A program made the translations under genes and the position numbers. The notes beneath the pieces were generated by a model, which did no database searches, was not told where the DNA came from, and worked only from the letters and a program-made list of their open reading frames with translations. 64,000 nucleotides of DNA. It comes from a virus. The stretch is taken from IMG/VR virus record IMGVR_UViG_3300047552_000676, positions 1 through 64,000 of that record; one strand, given 5' to 3'. Positions 44,611 to 63,937 of this stretch are shown here, piece by piece; the first letter of the stretch is position 1; each line of letters begins with the position of its first letter.

Positions 44611-45109
44611 AAAATCCTTTGAATGTAGATAAGTCCGGAGTGACCCGTACACCGTTATAAAATTGCCCTGTCCACACCTTAGGGATGTCCTTTAGACCAT
44701 AGAAGCGTTTCTTGTAGGGGAACTTTGGGTCTTCACCGCTAACGTAGTACTCTGCCCAATACCCAGACTCACGTGAGCCTTTCCTCAACATGACAGCTAC
44801 CGGAATCTGTTTGACCCCCTCTTTGATAAGAGCAGCTGAGCGATGACGACCTTCATGCCCAACTACCTTACCAGTTTCCATATCAATCTCTAACCAAGGT
44901 GGGTGTATGGAATCGCCTTTACGCGCAAACTCGTTGTACTCTTCAACGGTCTTGGTGTACTCGGCTTCTTCTTTTATCCATTGATCGACGTCTCCCTGAT
45001 TGATAGTCAACCGAATGAAGTCGTAGGGGTTCATCGTCATCATACCTATGCACTTGTTAGCCTTGGCCTGCGACATCATCTGCGGAGTTATTAGTAGCTG
45101 CTCAGCCAT
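44603..45109 (-). CDS. ParB/sulfiredoxin-fold-like protein
   Basis: 168 aa. The segment PPWLEIDMETGKVVGHEGRH followed by RSAALIKEGVKQIPVAVML matches phage proteins with a ParB/Srx-like fold, in which GHEGRHR lies near a nucleotide-binding loop. Its function, ADP-ribosylation-like, nuclease or ATPase, is unknown. It overlaps the kinase-like gene by 8 bp and the Nudix gene by 8 bp. Confidence 0.6.
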   Translation of the reverse strand: MAEQLLITPQMMSQAKANKCIGMMTMNPYDFIRLTINQGDVDQWIKEEAEYTKTVEEYNEFARKGDSIHPPWLEIDMETGKVVGHEGRHRSAALIKEGVKQIPVAVMLRKGSRESGYWAEYYVSGEDPKFPYKKRFYGLKDIPKVWTGQFYNGVRVTPDLSTFKGFYV

Positions 45110-45923
45110 AGAAGGGGTCCGTTATTACTGGATGATTATTGGAAGGGCGCTTCATGATGTTTCGCCACACGAGGTCCGGCTCGAATTTCATTTTGTTGTC
45201 GCTTATGTACTGAAGAGCTTCGCCTAGATGTCGATCAGACTTTTTAACCTGCTGAATGGTGGATTCGCCCGGGAAATTGTAGTAGTGATCGCGAAGAGTA
45301 GCCACATCCGCGTGCTCAAGCTTCGGATTAGCTTTTTTCATAAAGGCCAAGAAGTCTTCAAGCTTGGATTGGTTTAAGAACTCCAAGAAGGTGATGCTGA
45401 TCTTTTCGAACTCTGTATCCCCTGTAGTACGGTCGTAGACCTTTGGTACATACGGGTTTGATTGGTTCTTAGTAACGAACTTCATCCAGAGTGCGTAGCC
45501 GTCGTCCCCTTCGGCATCAGATAAACGAACTGCAATGTTGGGGTACTTAGGGTGCCGAAACACTTGGGAAAAGTCACCACTGCTAAGATAGGGCACCTTC
45601 ATCTTTAGTAGACGATCAACATAGTCGATTAGGTGCTTGTCTGCCTTGATTCGCAGGTTGGAGGCTTTGAGTCTTACCCGGTCTACTTGCCTACCGTGAT
45701 TGTCAGTAGCTTTTCCGGTGCTACGGCATCTGTCCCCGAACAGAGCTTGCAGGTCAGACGTAAGACTGTCTTTGGGATCATTTAGTAGAACAGAAAGTTC
45801 AACCATATTGTCTTCGGAACTCAGGACACCTACCTGTGCAACTCTATCCGAGAAAGTTTCCTGAATACGATGCATGTCCTTTATTGCCCACCCAGGGGCA
45901 CTAGAATACAGACGAATAGGCAT
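45102..45923 (-). CDS. atypical protein-kinase-like protein
   Basis: 273 aa. Several kinase-fold landmarks are visible: a loop LSSGDFSQVFRHPKYPN (113-129) like the Gly-rich loop, FEKISITFLEFLN resembling a hinge, and DLVWRNIMKR followed by VITDPF (250-270) like the catalytic loop (D...N) and DFG-type metal site. The beta-3 Lys is replaced by Arg (AVRL, 131-134), so activity may be altered or absent. Related kinase-like proteins occur in many phages and could modify host proteins. N-terminal residues MPIRL recur in neighbouring genes. Confidence 0.65.
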   Translation of the reverse strand: MPIRLYSSAPGWAIKDMHRIQETFSDRVAQVGVLSSEDNMVELSVLLNDPKDSLTSDLQALFGDRCRSTGKATDNHGRQVDRVRLKASNLRIKADKHLIDYVDRLLKMKVPYLSSGDFSQVFRHPKYPNIAVRLSDAEGDDGYALWMKFVTKNQSNPYVPKVYDRTTGDTEFEKISITFLEFLNQSKLEDFLAFMKKANPKLEHADVATLRDHYYNFPGESTIQQVKKSDRHLGEALQYISDNKMKFEPDLVWRNIMKRPSNNHPVITDPFYG

Positions 45924-58566: not shown

Positions 58567-58640
58567 TGGTAGCCCCTACAAGAATCGAACTTGTGTATCC
58601 GCCGTGTAAAAGCGATGTTCTACCATTGAACTAAGGGGCT
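58567..58640 (-). tRNA. tRNA-Val (anticodon UAC)
   Basis: Acceptor AGCCCCT pairs with AGGGGCT, T-loop TTCGATT, anticodon loop TTTACAC giving UAC. Encoded CCA follows the discriminator A. The first tRNA of the array as read leftwards toward the operon promoter. Confidence 0.92.
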
Positions 58641-58649
58641 GAAAATTGA

Positions 58650-58723
58650 TGGGAAGGGCTGGATTCAAACCAGCGACGCAAGCCTTATAATGGACTCCGC
58701 TCTATCAACTGAGCTACCCTCCC
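58650..58723 (-). tRNA. tRNA-Ile (anticodon UAU)
   Basis: Acceptor GGGAGGG with CCTTCCC (one G-U), D-arm TAGCTCAGTTGATAGAGC, anticodon loop ATTATAA giving UAU, T-loop TTTGAAT. One mismatch lies in the anticodon stem. CCA is not encoded (TCA follows). Confidence 0.85.
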
Positions 58724-58729
58724 GAAATC

Positions 58730-58803
58730 TGGAGCGGGAAACGGGAATCGAACCCGTGTCATTAGCTTGGAAGGCTAAGGTTCTACCATTAAACTACTCC
58801 CGC
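58730..58803 (-). tRNA. tRNA-Gly (anticodon UCC)
   Basis: Acceptor GCGGGAG with TTCCCGC, anticodon stem TTAGC/GCTAA with loop CTTCCAA giving UCC, T-loop TTCGATT, encoded CCA. A short leader separates it from the tmRNA coding piece. Confidence 0.93.
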
Positions 58804-58807
58804 AAGA

Positions 58808-59245
58808 AGTGGTCGGTTCTTACACAGACCCCCAGCAAGACTTGCGTCTAACTAGAGGTGACCGACCTTGCGAGGGCCTTCACTTCACTGGATCGGTATC
58901 ACCAGAAAGATCCGGGGCTCCCCCGCTCACTGGCTCAGGCACGCTGAGCGAACAGACTGTCGTTGGCAGTTGCTTGCTTTGCTTGGTATTTCATCTTGCT
59001 TCGTTTCCTCCACAAGACGAGGGCTCCGCTTGCCCTAGCAGTTCATCTCAGTGTTCTCATCCCCGTCGAAACCAGGACTGGCCCACCTAAGGATACTCAA
59101 GGTCGCTACTGACATAAAAGTATCATACTTTGTTAGGCGTATGAACTCAGGAATATCCTTAGGTGGACCAGGCGAGAGTCGAACTCGCGTCCGGAAACAA
59201 TTACACTTCGATTCTGGCAGGATTCACGCCCTGCCTACTGCCATC
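58808..59245 (-). ncRNA. ssrA: circularly permuted (two-piece) tmRNA
   Basis: On the minus strand the order is reversed from standard tmRNA. First comes the acceptor piece (about 59245 to 59162): GGCAGG/CCTGCC hairpin, then GGACGCGAGTTCGACTCTCG, the tmRNA T-arm, and acceptor strand CTGGTCC plus ACC. A 77-nt intervening segment follows, then the coding piece from G at 59084: GGGCCAGTCCTGGTTTCGAC, matching the conserved tmRNA 5-prime end. CTGGTCC pairs with GGGCCAG, and the pairing extends through the intervening segment to an 18-bp stem (59078-59095 with 59154-59171). A tag frame and pseudoknot-like stems follow. Mature RNA should rescue stalled ribosomes with SmpB. Confidence 0.85.
58935..58967 (-). 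other. tmRNA tag reading frame, ANDSLFAQRA
   Basis: Inside the coding piece GCC AAC GAC leads into a 10-codon frame ending with TGA at 58935-58937 and encoding ANDSLFAQRA. The stop lies in a hairpin (GCTCAG/CTGAGC), the position of helix 5 in known tmRNAs. The tag start AND is typical of proteobacteria, but the usual C-terminal LAA or AA degron is replaced by QRA. The resume codon is inferred from the ANDxxxA pattern, not shown. Confidence 0.7.
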
Positions 59246-59496
59246 TGAACTTATTTACAATGTTTTCAAGTGACTACTGCTGTGACTGCAGAAGTCAGCA
59301 CCTTGATTCAAGAAAAGATTACTCTAAGGATTAGAGTCTTGACTAGAGCATTAATTCTTCGTGGCATCGGACAACAGACCTCCGTCGTGGATAGGCTGTC
59401 TAGCTCACCTATCCCTCGTAAGCGTCTGTGCCTACTTTATCCGTTGACTATCTCGTTGGCCTAACGATTTGAGAGTAATCTTATCTCGAATCAACA
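59246..59496 (-). other. non-coding spacer with hairpins between tRNA-Arg and tmRNA
   Basis: About 250 bases without a credible gene. Palindromes include ACTCTAA-GGA-TTAGAGT (59321-59337) and GGATAGG/CCTATCC. It may hold a further non-coding RNA, tmRNA leader sequences or only processing sites; no clear promoter is seen. Confidence 0.35.
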
Positions 59497-59573
59497 TGGC
59501 GCGACCAGAGGGAGTCGAACCCCCGACCCACATCTTAGAAGGATGTTGCTCTATCCGGCTGAGCTATGGTCGC
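59497..59573 (-). tRNA. tRNA-Arg (anticodon UCU)
   Basis: Acceptor GCGACCA with TGGTCGC, D-arm TAGCTCAGCCGGATAGAGC, anticodon loop CTTCTAA giving UCU, T-loop TTCGACT, discriminator G and encoded CCA. Confidence 0.93.
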
Positions 59574-59578
59574 AAGAT

Positions 59579-59665
59579 TGGTGCGGGTGAGAGGACTCGA
59601 ACCTCCACGCTATTTCTAGCGCCAGACTCTAAATCTAGTGCGTCTACCAATTTCGCCACACCCGC
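59579..59665 (-). tRNA. tRNA-Leu (anticodon UAG)
   Basis: Class II tRNA: acceptor GCGGGTG/CACCCGC, anticodon loop TTTAGAG giving UAG, long variable arm with CGCTA-GAAA-TAGCG, T-loop TTCGAGT, encoded CCA. Confidence 0.93.
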
Positions 59666-59682
59666 AAATTTTGCGAAGCACT

Positions 59683-60270
59683 CTAAGAGTTTTTAAGACT
59701 CAGAGGCTTCAAGCTTATAACTGCAAAGGTTCTTAGATGACCTTCGTCAGAACCCCACAGTTCTGAACTAAACTCTTTCACATCATCCATGGACGACAGC
59801 GGTAGTAGCCGAACAGGAGTGCTGCGTCGGTCGAGGTAATAGGCGTATCTATCTGGGCGATCAAAGCTCTTCCTCAGCATCGACTGCCAAAAGGTTTTGC
59901 CTAGATCTGTCTGCTGAGTATCAGAGATTAGAGCGGTGTATTTTGGTAGTAGAATCTCATTGAAAACGTGCTCTGCAAACCCCGAAGCCTTGGGTTCTGA
60001 GTAGTACCGCCATAAAAGAACTTGACGACCTAATCGAAAACCATTTGCACGAACTTCCTTATGGCGTACCAAATACACCACTTTCTCGTCAACCACCAGA
60101 GCCACATATCCAATGTTCTTGTCACCGAAGGAATAAACCTTTTCGCCTTGGTATAACTCCAAGGGGGTGGGGGCGCTCTTACCTTTCTTATAGATTAGAG
60201 AGAGGACGTACAGAATAAGGCTATCGCCTAAATTAGGAATTATCTTAGTGGCCTCTATTTCATTCGACAT
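59683..60270 (-). CDS. acetyltransferase-like phage protein, paralogue A
   Basis: 195 aa. The segment SDTQQTDLGKTFWQSMLRKSF followed by VRLLPL resembles VS(D)xxQ(S/T)xxGKxFW in phage proteins often annotated as acetyltransferase-like. A related gene lies at 62484-63155 with SDSVQSQAGKAFWERRLHEA. Function unknown; the family tends to sit among tRNA clusters or regulatory genes. Confidence 0.6.
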   Translation of the reverse strand: MSNEIEATKIIPNLGDSLILYVLSLIYKKGKSAPTPLELYQGEKVYSFGDKNIGYVALVVDEKVVYLVRHKEVRANGFRLGRQVLLWRYYSEPKASGFAEHVFNEILLPKYTALISDTQQTDLGKTFWQSMLRKSFDRPDRYAYYLDRRSTPVRLLPLSSMDDVKEFSSELWGSDEGHLRTFAVISLKPLSLKNS

Positions 60271-60280
60271 GAACTAATCC

Positions 60281-60547
60281 TTAGTCTTTAGAAGGATTCT
60301 TTGGCAGACCAGTGTTTGTGAACTCACCCCAATTCATTAACAGTGTTGTCCCCGACATATACTCTTTGTGATTCAGGCTTCGATAAGTGCCACGATTTAG
60401 ACCTTCACCACGTACTGCAATGATGAACGGAACAGAGTTTGTCTTCTGGGTCATTCTGCGAAGAGAACCAACTGAGATTTGCTTTTTGCGGAGTTGTCCA
60501 TCGTATGGACCGCCTTGAAAGCGAAGGGAAACTACTACGTCAGTCAC
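60281..60547 (-). CDS. small protein of unknown function
   Basis: About 88 aa if the GTG at 60545-60547 is the start; a longer frame to 60607 would overlap the upstream gene by 56 bp. Beta-rich pattern (VVVSLRFQGGPYDGQLRKKQ). No family recognised, and no strong ribosome site is visible. Confidence 0.5.
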   Translation of the reverse strand: MTDVVVSLRFQGGPYDGQLRKKQISVGSLRRMTQKTNSVPFIIAVRGEGLNRGTYRSLNHKEYMSGTTLLMNWGEFTNTGLPKNPSKD

Positions 60548-60551
60548 AGTG

Positions 60552-60857
60552 TTATGTACGAACTGGATCAGGGAACTTAAACTTTTCTTGCAGGATCTGC
60601 ACCACACGATCGATCAGCGGTCGATCAGCGGTCCAGAACTCTATCATTAAGTAGGTAGGGTCCACCGACTGGAAGAACAAATGAGACCTACGAAACTCGT
60701 TGCTGAACTCCGAGTTCGACCATTGCGTTTGGCTATTGCAGAACGCTATGACCTTCTCGTTGAAGTTAGTCAACGACTCCTCTGTAGAGTGAAAGGTCAG
60801 ACAGACACCCTTCATAGGCATTGACCCGAGACGGATCGCTACGTTGTCGAAATTCAT
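60552..60857 (-). CDS. small protein of unknown function
   Basis: About 101 aa from ATG 60857, with GGGGA eight bases upstream; a longer start at 60872 is possible. Beta-alpha in appearance (FFQSVDPTYLMIEFWTAD). No family recognised. Confidence 0.6.
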   Translation of the reverse strand: MNFDNVAIRLGSMPMKGVCLTFHSTEESLTNFNEKVIAFCNSQTQWSNSEFSNEFRRSHLFFQSVDPTYLMIEFWTADRPLIDRVVQILQEKFKFPDPVRT

Positions 60858-60906
60858 TTTTGAAATCCCCATTAGATTTGATGGTGCGAGCGGCGGAAAT
60901 CGAACA

Positions 60907-60991
60907 TGGTGGGCGGTGAGAGACTCGAACTCTCACACCTTTCGGCGTCTGAGCTTAAATCAGATGTGTCTACCAATTTCACCAACCGCCC
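60907..60991 (-). tRNA. tRNA-Leu (anticodon UAA)
   Basis: Acceptor GGGCGGT/ACCGCCC, anticodon stem TCTGA/TCAGA with loop TTTAAGC giving UAA, variable arm CGCC-GAAA-GGTG, T-loop TTCGAGT, encoded CCA. Confidence 0.93.
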
Positions 60992-61024
60992 TATTGTTAA
61001 CGACTACGTCTAGACTCGCGACGA

Positions 61025-61228
61025 TTATTCTAAGACACGGATCTCAACTGAAGCTACTCGACATCCAGACGACTTCAACTTTGACCATTCTTTTGCGCCA
61101 TAGAAGTTCGCGGCCCACTCTTCTACTTGTTCCTTACTACTCCGCGTAGAGTAAGGTAGAACTTGATTATAGTCGTTCACGATAGCCGCCGCCAACCTAG
61201 TGATAGGTTGCTCTTTGGGGTTTTTCAT
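61025..61228 (-). CDS. small protein of unknown function
   Basis: 67 aa, helical (KEQVEEWAANFYGAKEWSKL). Lies between two tRNA genes. No family recognised. Confidence 0.55.
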   Translation of the reverse strand: MKNPKEQPITRLAAAIVNDYNQVLPYSTRSSKEQVEEWAANFYGAKEWSKLKSSGCRVASVEIRVLE

Positions 61229-61264
61229 TCATGAATCATGCAGTGTGAATTCATTGTTAGTAAG

Positions 61265-61350
61265 TGGTCGGAGTGATAGGATTCGAACCTACGGGGCTTT
61301 CGCACTGCGTCCCAAACGCAGCCCGCTACCTGACTACGGTCTACACTCCG
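61265..61350 (-). tRNA. tRNA-Pro (anticodon UGG), with long variable arm
   Basis: Acceptor CGGAGTG/CACTCCG, anticodon stem CTGCG/CGCAG with loop TTTGGGA giving UGG, T-loop TTCGAAT, encoded CCA. It is longer than normal because of a 12-nt variable region with a GC-GAAA-GC mini-hairpin, and the D-stem pairs poorly in the standard position. Probably functional but unusual. Confidence 0.8.
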
Positions 61351-61361
61351 ACTGAACTCTA

Positions 61362-61547
61362 TTAGTCCCAGTAATCCGGCTTTGCCCGCTCACGAGGTTC
61401 CAACCTATCGAGTTCAGATTGATTACCGCGAACCAGAGAACGGATAAACATATTGAACTCTCGCCGCAACGGGCGAATCTCAAACAGATTGGTAAACCAA
61501 GAGGGTGCACCACGACGGTGCTTGGGACGAAACTTTGACTTGCTCAT
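61362..61547 (-). CDS. small basic protein of unknown function
   Basis: 61 aa, strongly basic N-terminus (MSKSKFRPKHRRG) and Arg-rich body, possibly nucleic-acid binding. No family recognised. Confidence 0.55.
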   Translation of the reverse strand: MSKSKFRPKHRRGAPSWFTNLFEIRPLRREFNMFIRSLVRGNQSELDRLEPRERAKPDYWD

Positions 61548-61617
61548 GTGATGCTCCTAGGTATTTAGCCTAAAGCCTCACGACCTCCATCACGCAAGGT
61601 GTTCTCCTTTGATCAGG

Positions 61618-61971
61618 TTACGCTGGCGTCCGAGAGTAATCGAACACGGAGTTCGGAATTCTCCGATAGCCATCGGAAGTCAAGGCATAAACCCTAACCT
61701 CTGTTTTAGCCTGTCGGACTATTTGTTCAAAGTCCATGATGTAAAAGGATTGCGACCCAAACATCGTGTCCAAAGCCTGGAACTGAACTTTGTAGTTATC
61801 TTTCACTTGGTAACGATGCTCGACGATTTCGCATTCAACAATCTCTTCAGGCTGAGACGATGAAGTAAAGGCAATGCCTGGAATGATGCCCACGAACTCC
61901 AGGCGCTGCATCGGTATGAAGAACCGTAGATTCTTGACTCCATACTCGGACACTAGGTTGGCTAGGCGCAT
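61618..61971 (-). CDS. small protein of unknown function
   Basis: About 117 aa from ATG 61971 (GGAG six bases upstream, inside the end of the upstream gene). A beta-rich domain with EIVECEIVEHRYQVKDNYKV. No family recognised. Its end has a tRNA T-arm-like look by chance (see rejected items). Confidence 0.55.
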   Translation of the reverse strand: MRLANLVSEYGVKNLRFFIPMQRLEFVGIIPGIAFTSSSQPEEIVECEIVEHRYQVKDNYKVQFQALDTMFGSQSFYIMDFEQIVRQAKTEVRVYALTSDGYRRIPNSVFDYSRTPA

Positions 61972-61972
61972 G

Positions 61973-62368
61973 TCACTCTCCAAAGAAATGCTTCGAACGT
62001 TCCTGGATAACCTTCAAGCTGCCTTCGCTGAGGGCAGTCAGCACATGACCATGTATAAAGACATCGCCTCGATAATGCATGCCGTCACATTCTACTACAG
62101 ACCGTCTTCCGATCTCGACGGCGTTGGTGAATTCTTTCAGCGTAGAGAAAGTGAGATCGTACAAAGGCGTACCATCGCAGTCACGCGTGTGTTTGCACAC
62201 ATAGAGGCGGAGCCCGTTGTCTTCGTAGTAAACTTCCCGATGGATGTCGTACTCTAGGATCTCCACCAGAGCACCAATGGGTATGCTGTGCTTCACCTGC
62301 AGATTTTCTTGCCGACCGGTCAAGCCTGTCTTGGGATTGACGATGTCTGAAACGAACACTACGCTCAT
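61973..62368 (-). CDS. small protein of unknown function
   Basis: 131 aa, beta-rich with a LYDLTF segment (VEILEYDIHREVYYEDNGLRL). It provides the ribosome site for the next gene (TTTGGAGAGTGACATG). No family recognised. Confidence 0.55.
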   Translation of the reverse strand: MSVVFVSDIVNPKTGLTGRQENLQVKHSIPIGALVEILEYDIHREVYYEDNGLRLYVCKHTRDCDGTPLYDLTFSTLKEFTNAVEIGRRSVVECDGMHYRGDVFIHGHVLTALSEGSLKVIQERSKHFFGE

Positions 62369-62397
62369 ATCAAGTTCCTTTAACTTGGTGGTGAAAA

Positions 62398-62474
62398 TGG
62401 TGGGACCAACAGGGCTCGAACCTGTGACCGATCGATTATGAGTCGACTGCTCTAACCAACTGAGCTATGGTCCC
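62398..62474 (-). tRNA. tRNA-Met, elongator type (anticodon CAU)
   Basis: Acceptor GGGACCA/TGGTCCC, D-arm TAGCTCAGTTGGTTAGAGC, anticodon loop CTCATAA giving CAU, T-loop TTCGAGC, encoded CCA. D- and T-arm sequences are close to bacterial elongator Met; a lysidine-Ile reading is less likely. Confidence 0.9.
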
Positions 62475-62483
62475 AGAAGACGA

Positions 62484-63155
62484 CTAAGACTTCCGCTTAT
62501 GGGCGATAGCGAATCGCCAATTCAGTCCTGAATCGTCTTTGTTAACTTCGTAAGTCCAGTACTTCTGGAGCGAAGTATCCTTTGCTAGGGGAACTACCTC
62601 GGTCACTTTCACTTTGGACCCAGTCTCAGAGAAGTGACAAGCATAGGCGCTGTACCCACGAATCTTGGCTTCGTGAAGCCTACGCTCCCAGAAAGCTTTT
62701 CCAGCTTGGCTCTGGACGGAGTCAGAGAACCAGTTCTTTCTCTGGGAAAGTTTCCAGAACACATCTGCTACGAAAGTCTGACCTAGAGTTTCTAGCGCCC
62801 TCGCGCTACGCCAGACTGACCCCTGATATATCGAAAAGGCGTTAAACTGCGAAACGATTTGCGAGTCTACCGCCGAGTCGAAAGTAAACCTCAGAGGGTT
62901 TAGGTGCATTAAATAGTCTAGCTCATTGAGCTGAGTATCTACTGCGTAGAGCCAGAGTCGGTTGTTGGTATCGATGGATACTCGAAATTCAACCCACGAG
63001 GCTTGTGGCTGAGGCGGGGACTGAATGACTTTACTGTTTCTCGTCTGTTCGACGATAAACCTGTGTTGAGATTGCGGGGTCTTCACAATCTCAGGGATGT
63101 AATCGGAGGCCCTCACCATAGACATGGCGACAAGAGGGGACTTAGAAGTCGTCAA
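62484..63155 (-). CDS. acetyltransferase-like phage protein, paralogue B
   Basis: 223 aa if a TTG at 63155 is used (GAAGG eight bases upstream, within a palindrome); ATG at 63125 is the alternative. The motif SDSVQSQAGKAFWERRL and the later VTEVVPLA match 59683-60270. The gene overlaps the upstream zinc-finger gene by 4 bp. Function unknown. Confidence 0.6.
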   Translation of the reverse strand: MTTSKSPLVAMSMVRASDYIPEIVKTPQSQHRFIVEQTRNSKVIQSPPQPQASWVEFRVSIDTNNRLWLYAVDTQLNELDYLMHLNPLRFTFDSAVDSQIVSQFNAFSIYQGSVWRSARALETLGQTFVADVFWKLSQRKNWFSDSVQSQAGKAFWERRLHEAKIRGYSAYACHFSETGSKVKVTEVVPLAKDTSLQKYWTYEVNKDDSGLNWRFAIAHKRKS

Positions 63156-63397
63156 GGTAGAAGCCTTCTACAGAAGGGATAGAATCCTTCTACAGAAGGT
63201 TTCGGGCGACCACTGCCAGAGCAGCACGCTAGACAAGGACCTACTGCGGTGTAGTCGAGGACTGGATCTCCGTAGACCGGAGCGTACCTCTTTCGTGTCC
63301 CGTTGCACTCGTCGCACCCTGGAGTGTACTTCTTGCGAACGAAACTATTTACAGCTTTCACTTCAGCTTCAACTTGCTCACGAGTCATCTTGTTCAC
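63152..63397 (-). CDS. small zinc-finger protein (DnaJ-type CxxCxG pairs)
   Basis: 81 aa. CDECNGTRKRY and CLACCSGSGRP form two CxxC knuckles in DnaJ-like spacing, so the protein probably binds zinc and may act as a small redox or nucleic-acid factor. Its end encodes two exact palindromic repeats (see findings). Confidence 0.65.
   Translation of the reverse strand: MNKMTREQVEAEVKAVNSFVRKKYTPGCDECNGTRKRYAPVYGDPVLDYTAVGPCLACCSGSGRPKPSVEGFYPFCRRLLP
63164..63199 (-). repeat. two 14-bp palindromes with 22-bp period before the paralogue B start
   Basis: CCTTCTACAGAAGG occurs at 63164-63177 and 63186-63199. Each is a near-perfect palindrome, and the 22-bp period places them on the same face of the helix. 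They overlap the coding end of the zinc-finger gene and the ribosome site of the next gene, so they may act as an operator or as a translational hairpin. Confidence 0.65.
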
Positions 63398-63431
63398 TTT
63401 TACCTCGACTCCATAGCTAAGGGGGTCACAA

Positions 63432-63616
63432 TGCTAGTTGATGCACTCTACCATGTTTCCTAGAGGGTCCAGCTCTAGGCTGCCATACTACCCAGGTAGA
63501 TAGGTACGCACCGAGATTTTACTTCTTAGTACAGCCACGTCTTGGACACGTGACATAACTCCTGACCGGGAAGTAGGACTGACTCGTTGCGATTTTCGCT
63601 CGTGCATCAACTAGCA
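63432..63616 (-). ncRNA. candidate structured RNA enclosed by a 15-bp stem
   Basis: TGCTAGTTGATGCAC (63432-63446) and its exact complement (63602-63616) enclose 155 bases with several internal hairpins: CCTAGAG/CTCTAGG, CACGT/ACGTG, CTACC/GGTAG and GCGA-AAA-TCGC. No gene fits on either strand. It lies between tRNA-Ser and the zinc-finger gene. The strand is inferred from the direction of neighbouring genes; the structure itself reads on both. Confidence 0.5.
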
Positions 63617-63638
63617 CTATGATAAATCAACTAGAGGT

Positions 63639-63728
63639 TGGCGGAAACGGTGAGATTCGAACTCACGAACGAGTTACCTCGTTATCGGTTTTCAAGACCG
63701 AGGCATTAAACCACTCTGCCACGTTTCC
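63639..63728 (-). tRNA. tRNA-Ser (anticodon UGA)
   Basis: Class II tRNA: acceptor GGAAACG/CGTTTCC, anticodon stem TCGGT/ACCGA with loop CTTGAAA giving UGA, long variable arm, T-loop TTCGAAT, discriminator G, encoded CCA. Confidence 0.92.
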
Positions 63729-63824
63729 GTTTTCTACCGCGGTTTCCAACCCTCTCCGAGGTAGGTGTAAAGTGCAAACTGTGCCATGTTTACTTCAGGG
63801 TTAGGTTTTACTTTGCGGTAGTTT

Positions 63825-63853
63825 ATTGTACCACAGATCCCACAAAAATGCAA
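63825..63853 (-). promoter_or_regulatory. sigma70-like promoter P2
   Basis: On the minus strand TTGCAT (63848-63853) and TACAAT (63825-63830) are separated by 17 bases. It matches P1 in flanks and spacing and faces tRNA-Ser and the RNA island. It sits after tRNA-Thr and so divides the tRNA array into at least two transcription units. Confidence 0.8.
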
Positions 63854-63863
63854 GGAGTATTTC

Positions 63864-63937
63864 TGGTGCCCTGTGACTGAATCGAACAGTCGGGGGCGGC
63901 TTACAAAACCGCTCGTTTACCACTAACGGAACAGGGC
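63864..63937 (-). tRNA. tRNA-Thr (anticodon UGU)
   Basis: Acceptor GCCCTGT/ACAGGGC, anticodon stem GCGGT/GCCGC with loop TTTGTAA giving UGU, T-loop TTCGATT, discriminator A, encoded CCA. Confidence 0.92.

What the first reader, a model, noticed from the sequence alone, without database searches (positions are those of the whole stretch)
58935..58967. Unusual tmRNA tag without the LAA degron
The tag appears to be ANDSLFAQRA. Host tags mostly end in LAA or AA residues recognised by ClpXP and other proteases. A phage tag ending QRA could let tagged products escape degradation or direct them differently while still freeing ribosomes.
Basis: inference. Interest (0 to 1): 0.75.

Follow-up and report, generated by a model that had tools for sequence, protein, structure and literature searches.

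The report
Phage two-piece tmRNA, altered tag
A large phage carries its own ribosome-rescue RNA whose tag ends in Arg-Ala instead of the near-universal Ala-Ala, so it can probably free stuck ribosomes while marking the released protein only weakly for destruction; no experiment has tested this.

Summary
A tmRNA gene lies on the minus strand at 58844-59253, and its tag ANDSLFAQRA plus stop occupies exactly 58935-58967. It sits in a tRNA array of a jumbo-type myovirus related to BcepSauron and Motura. ARAGORN and Rfam RF04321 (60.8 bits) agree; ARAGORN made no tmRNA call in 6.4 Mb of shuffled sequence. The acceptor stem, G3-U70 alanine identity pair, T arm and resume-codon context are intact.

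The C-terminus is truly unusual. Of 149 permuted viral tmRNA calls sampled, 141 tags end in AA and none in RA. Pattern scans found no second RA tag, within their limits. Related phages carry ANDSIFEQRLAA and ANDSSFDQRLAA, so the tag is best explained as having lost codons L-A (6 nt, in frame). That removes the Ala-Ala end that ClpX recognises most strongly. The SspB-type AND...F portion remains.

Most likely it is a working phage tmRNA whose degron is weakened rather than abolished, perhaps adaptor-dependent. Drift, or interference with host tagging, are live rivals. Two-piece phage tmRNAs are already published; the RA-ending tag is a new variant of a known kind.

The parts
58844..59253 (-). 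permuted (two-piece) tmRNA gene, whole ARAGORN call
58935..58967 (-). tag reading frame: GCC resume codon to TGA, ANDSLFAQRA*
   Evidence: frame supported by homologous tags
58938..58943 (-). last two codons CGT GCC (Arg-Ala); between them relatives L061 and L062 hold CTC GCG (Leu-Ala), i.e. the site of the inferred 6-nt in-frame deletion
59172..59188 (-). T arm GCGAG-TTCGACT-CTCGC of the tRNA-like domain (acceptor RNA)
59165..59171 (-). 3' strand of acceptor stem (CTGGTCC), with U70; followed by ACC then T, so the CCA end is not fully encoded
59078..59084 (-). 5' strand of acceptor stem (GGGCCAG) at the start of the coding RNA; G3 pairs with U70
59085..59161 (-). intervening transcribed segment between the acceptor RNA and the coding RNA (boundaries inferred); its ends extend the acceptor helix to 21 predicted pairs
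   Evidence: predicted fold; limits inferred from the acceptor stem
58567..63937 (-). array of ten tRNA genes (Val, Ile, Gly, Arg, Leu, Leu, Pro, Met, Ser, Thr) in which the tmRNA lies

Best explanation
A functional, phage-encoded two-piece tmRNA, probably made with the surrounding tRNA array and matured by host enzymes, that uses host SmpB and host alanyl-tRNA synthetase to rescue stalled ribosomes during infection. Its tag descends from an ANDSxFxQRLAA tag by loss of the Leu-Ala codons. The remaining end, Arg-Ala, lacks the Ala-Ala that ClpX binds best, so tagged products should be degraded more slowly or only when an SspB-type adaptor holds them through the retained AND...F part. Shown here: gene form, tag, its rarity, and the comparison with related tags. 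Inferred: expression, processing, charging, dependence on host SmpB, and weakened proteolysis.
For: Intact tRNA-like domain: all 7 acceptor pairs formed, G3-U70, canonical T arm, the AACU|GCC resume context shared with relatives; stable fold with P2 and extended acceptor helix; embedded in a tRNA array. Acceptor stems of seven phage tmRNAs differ in sequence but all pair, which is covariation expected of a working RNA. Tags L061 ANDSIFEQRLAA and L062 ANDSSFDQRLAA align to it with a clean 6-nt gap, and L061 shares the GGGCAAGCGGAGCCC and AAATACCAAGCAAAG blocks in the coding RNA. AA end in 141 of 149 permuted viral tags. Ala-Ala most important for ClpXP and penultimate changes raise KM (PMC7652416). 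Rescue, not degradation, is what sustains cells (PMC8012679). No SmpB or SspB gene found in the fragment or in related phages with tmRNA.
Against: Only one contig carries this tag, so purifying selection on it cannot be tested. No expression or degradation data. In other viral tags that lack AA the penultimate residue is mostly V or N, and valine is a mild change, so a charged residue here could be drift. ClpX also accepts other C-terminal motifs such as the basic MuA end RRKKAI (PMC8138137), and ClpAP, Lon and FtsH also degrade ssrA-tagged proteins, so the product may still be degraded. Host unknown.
Confidence: 0.6

Rival explanations
1. Drift: the phage tmRNA works, but since rescue does not need degradation, the tag end is under weak selection and the -QRA end has no special role.
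For: Within this phage group tmRNA is sporadic on the portal tree, and a second, separate clade has ANDENFRMVA, so loss of AA happened at least twice. Penultimate residues N, V, M, H and R occur among viral tags.
Against: 95% of permuted viral tags keep AA and 148 of 149 keep the final Ala, so phage tags are in general under constraint.
Confidence: 0.22
2. Interference: the phage tmRNA competes with the host's for SmpB and ribosomes, so that stalled products, phage ones included, receive a poorly degraded tag; a counter to host quality control or to defences that cut mRNA.
For: No phage SmpB found, so host SmpB would have to be shared. Precedent: a molecule like phage DS6A's tRNA-like-domain-only RNA inhibits tmRNA, perhaps by titrating SmpB (PMC4131195).
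Against: Unlike DS6A the tag frame is present; nothing links it to defence; most phage tmRNAs keep AA.
Confidence: 0.1
3. Decaying or mis-sequenced gene: the tmRNA was picked up as passenger DNA and is on its way out, or the deletion is an assembly artefact.
For: The closest phage relatives by portal (L012, L021, L003) show no match; single metagenomic contig.
Against: The tRNA-like domain, resume context and stop are all intact; the gap is exactly two codons and in frame, which is unusual for a sequencing error.
Confidence: 0.08

Closest known systems
Two-piece (circularly permuted) tmRNA, Rfam RF04321 tmRNA_permuted / RF01850 beta_tmRNA
   Same: Gene order acceptor RNA then coding RNA, tRNA-like domain, intervening segment, AND-type tag
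   Different: Carried by a phage; tag ends RA; the CCA end is not fully encoded; RF01850 score below its curated cut-off
Two-piece tmRNA of Methylophilales phage Melnitz and other marine phages (PMC9004378)
   Same: Phage-encoded permuted tmRNA, presumed to use host SmpB
   Different: That one is alpha-type and reported under a glutamine riboswitch; a gathering-threshold Rfam scan of this window listed no riboswitch
Permuted tmRNAs of related jumbo-type phages found here (L059-L063) and of Tunturiibacter phage Tunturi_5
   Same: Same gene form; L061 and L062 nearly the same tag up to QR
   Different: All but L060 (MVA) end in AA
Engineered weakened ssrA tags (LAA-to-DAS with spacer; degradation-deficient tag variants)
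   Same: Ribosome rescue kept while the C-terminal ClpX signal is weakened
   Different: Engineered, not natural; QRA itself is untested

Membership tests
permuted (two-piece) tmRNA | covariance-model match over the curated cut-off | tested here: met
   RF04321 60.8 bits vs 47
permuted (two-piece) tmRNA | permuted order: acceptor piece upstream of coding piece, with segment between | tested here: met
   ARAGORN tmRNA* with tag at 287-319 of 410; fold
permuted (two-piece) tmRNA | alanine identity pair G3-U70 and intact acceptor stem / T arm | tested here: met
permuted (two-piece) tmRNA | tag frame with resume codon and stop | tested here: met
permuted (two-piece) tmRNA | transcript processed into two RNAs and charged with alanine | not testable with these tools
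   needs RNA work
beta_tmRNA RF01850 | score over curated cut-off | tested here: not met
   60.9 bits vs 84, partial match 66-178 of 331
ssrA-type ClpXP degron | C-terminal Ala-Ala | tested here: not met
   tag ends Arg-Ala
ssrA-type ClpXP degron | degradation of tagged protein | not testable with these tools
   needs reporter assay
ssrA-type SspB-bound tag | N-terminal AND and aromatic residue | tested here: inconclusive
   AND...F present, but binding by the host's adaptor is unknown

The most novel reading that the evidence does not exclude
The phage tmRNA has evolved a tag that rescues ribosomes yet shields the released polypeptides from ClpXP (or makes degradation conditional on an adaptor), separating rescue from degradation in nature and overriding host tagging during infection.
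Probability: 0.2. Interest if true: 0.65.

Novelty: new variant of a known kind. Interest (0 to 1): 0.36.

Why it matters
Trans-translation couples ribosome rescue to protein degradation. Engineered tags show that the two can be separated; a natural phage tag that does so would show that phages exploit this, and would offer a simple reporter test of whether phage tmRNAs serve rescue, amino-acid recycling or interference with host quality control. The comparison also shows that the penultimate alanine is the place where viral tags vary, while the last alanine is almost fixed.

Tried and rejected
Another reading frame: the relatives' tags align in the ANDSLFAQRA frame and the other frames give no AA end. 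ARAGORN false positive: rejected by shuffles and Rfam. Phage-supplied SmpB or SspB: none found in these records, which are partly fragments. A bacterial source with an RA-ending or ANDSxFxQRxAA tag: two scans of 84,980 genomes found none; the pattern does match the window, but both are narrow exact patterns, so absence is weak evidence. Other viral RA tags: none in two viral scans whose patterns do match the window. Plasmid search with the coding RNA: no match. A promoter of its own: none beyond chance on the minus strand. An exact search with CTGGTTTCGACGGGGATG found nothing.

Full report
Observation. ARAGORN finds a permuted tmRNA at 58844-59253 on the minus strand with tag ANDSLFAQRA. The reading frame GCC AAC GAC AGT CTG TTC GCT CAG CGT GCC TGA lies at 58935-58967 exactly as given. 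Rfam tmRNA_permuted supports it with 60.8 bits, cut-off 47, and ARAGORN makes no tmRNA call in 100 dinucleotide-shuffled copies of the window. The predicted fold has z = -3.3 and shows the T arm, a nine-pair P2 between the two pieces and a 21-pair acceptor helix that runs on into the intervening segment. All seven acceptor pairs form, the third is G-U (the alanine identity pair, established knowledge), and the encoded 3' end is ACC followed by T, so the final A must be added (inference).

Context. The window is part of a 70,115-base viral record. Portal, terminase, sheath and baseplate proteins mark it as a contractile-tailed phage. The nearest isolates in the collection are Burkholderia phages BcepSauron and BcepSaruman and Achromobacter phage Motura, with about 35-42% identity in portal and sheath, all over 200 kb, so the contig is probably a fragment of a jumbo phage, with a betaproteobacterial host likely but unproven (inference). 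The tmRNA lies in an array of ten tRNA genes on the same strand. No SmpB or SspB gene was found in it or in related phages with tmRNA; fragments may lack them.

Relatives. A search of 36 related viral contigs and three phage records with RF04321 gave six matches over the cut-off: tags ANDEQFAQALAA (twice), ANDSIFEQRLAA, AANDSSFDQRLAA, ANDENFRMVA, and an unannotated permuted tmRNA in Tunturiibacter phage Tunturi_5, whose 34-residue tag ends MAA. BcepSauron and Motura have none. On a portal tree the tmRNA carriers are scattered, and the two tags without AA (this one and MVA) lie in different clades. The window's coding RNA shares sequence blocks with L061, and against L061 and L062 the tag shows a clean six-base gap: CAGCGT------GCCTGA against CAGCGCCTCGCGGCCTGA. 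The simplest history is an in-frame loss of the Leu-Ala codons. Two substitutions in an ANDxxFALAA-type tag are possible but do not explain the shared QR.

How unusual. Of the permuted tags 141 end AA; the others end NA (3), VA (2), MA, HA and GG. The last residue is Ala in 148 of 149. No permuted tag ends RA. Two more viral scans for RA-ending tags, with patterns that match the window itself, found nothing, and a scan of 84,980 bacterial and archaeal genomes for a 10-residue RA tag found nothing. These patterns are narrow, and the first samples were partly selected by the sequence GGTTTCGAC...GCNAACGAY, so the frequencies are estimates. Some records may be prophage or host DNA.

Mechanism. 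Published work holds that the terminal Ala-Ala is the most important part of the ssrA tag for ClpXP and that a change of the penultimate or last alanine raises KM with little effect on Vmax (PMC7652416). Tags with a weakened C-terminus can be stable without SspB and degraded fast with it (PMC8138137). Cells survive with degradation-deficient tags, because release of the ribosome is what matters (PMC8012679). I therefore take the gene to be a working rescue RNA with a weakened, perhaps adaptor-dependent degron. Charging, processing, tagging and slower degradation are inferred. The strong reading, that the phage shields tagged products on purpose, is not excluded and not shown. Against it: one sequence only, and drift in a tag whose degradation function may be dispensable explains the facts as well.

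Novelty. Two-piece tmRNAs in phages are published: 53 of 133 unique phage tmRNAs were called two-piece, mostly marine (PMC9004378), and 79 phage tmRNA sequences are in the 2025 database (PMC11915505). New here are the RA-ending tag, its derivation from a QRLAA tag, and permuted tmRNAs in this jumbo-type phage group. I rate it a new variant of a known kind.

Noticed in passing
L057 (PP885688.1 157899-158195, minus strand): Tunturiibacter phage Tunturi_5 carries an unannotated permuted tmRNA (RF04321 86 bits) that ARAGORN misses; its tag is 34 residues, AKNSPVVRGTAKVLSFARKFVPAVSSTRAFAMAA.
   Followed up: partly
L079, L229, L256: Three viral permuted tmRNA tags end in ANA (LLAANA, LMTANA, LRANA), a recurrent departure from AA.
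   Followed up: no
L060, L127, L133: Three viral permuted tmRNA tags end in VA (RMVA, LMVA, ALVA).
   Followed up: no
L221, L223, L227, L247, L252, L268, L271, L277, L279: A set of long viral tags (28-31 residues) shares an inner peptide TFDFSAMSFTGN or a close form before the usual ALAA end.
   Followed up: no
58567-63937: Ten tRNA genes on one strand, with gaps that hold small genes without known family.
   Followed up: partly
45102-45923: Weak match to a phage protein kinase family (phrog_15752, E 2e-6) said to inhibit host transcription.
   Followed up: no
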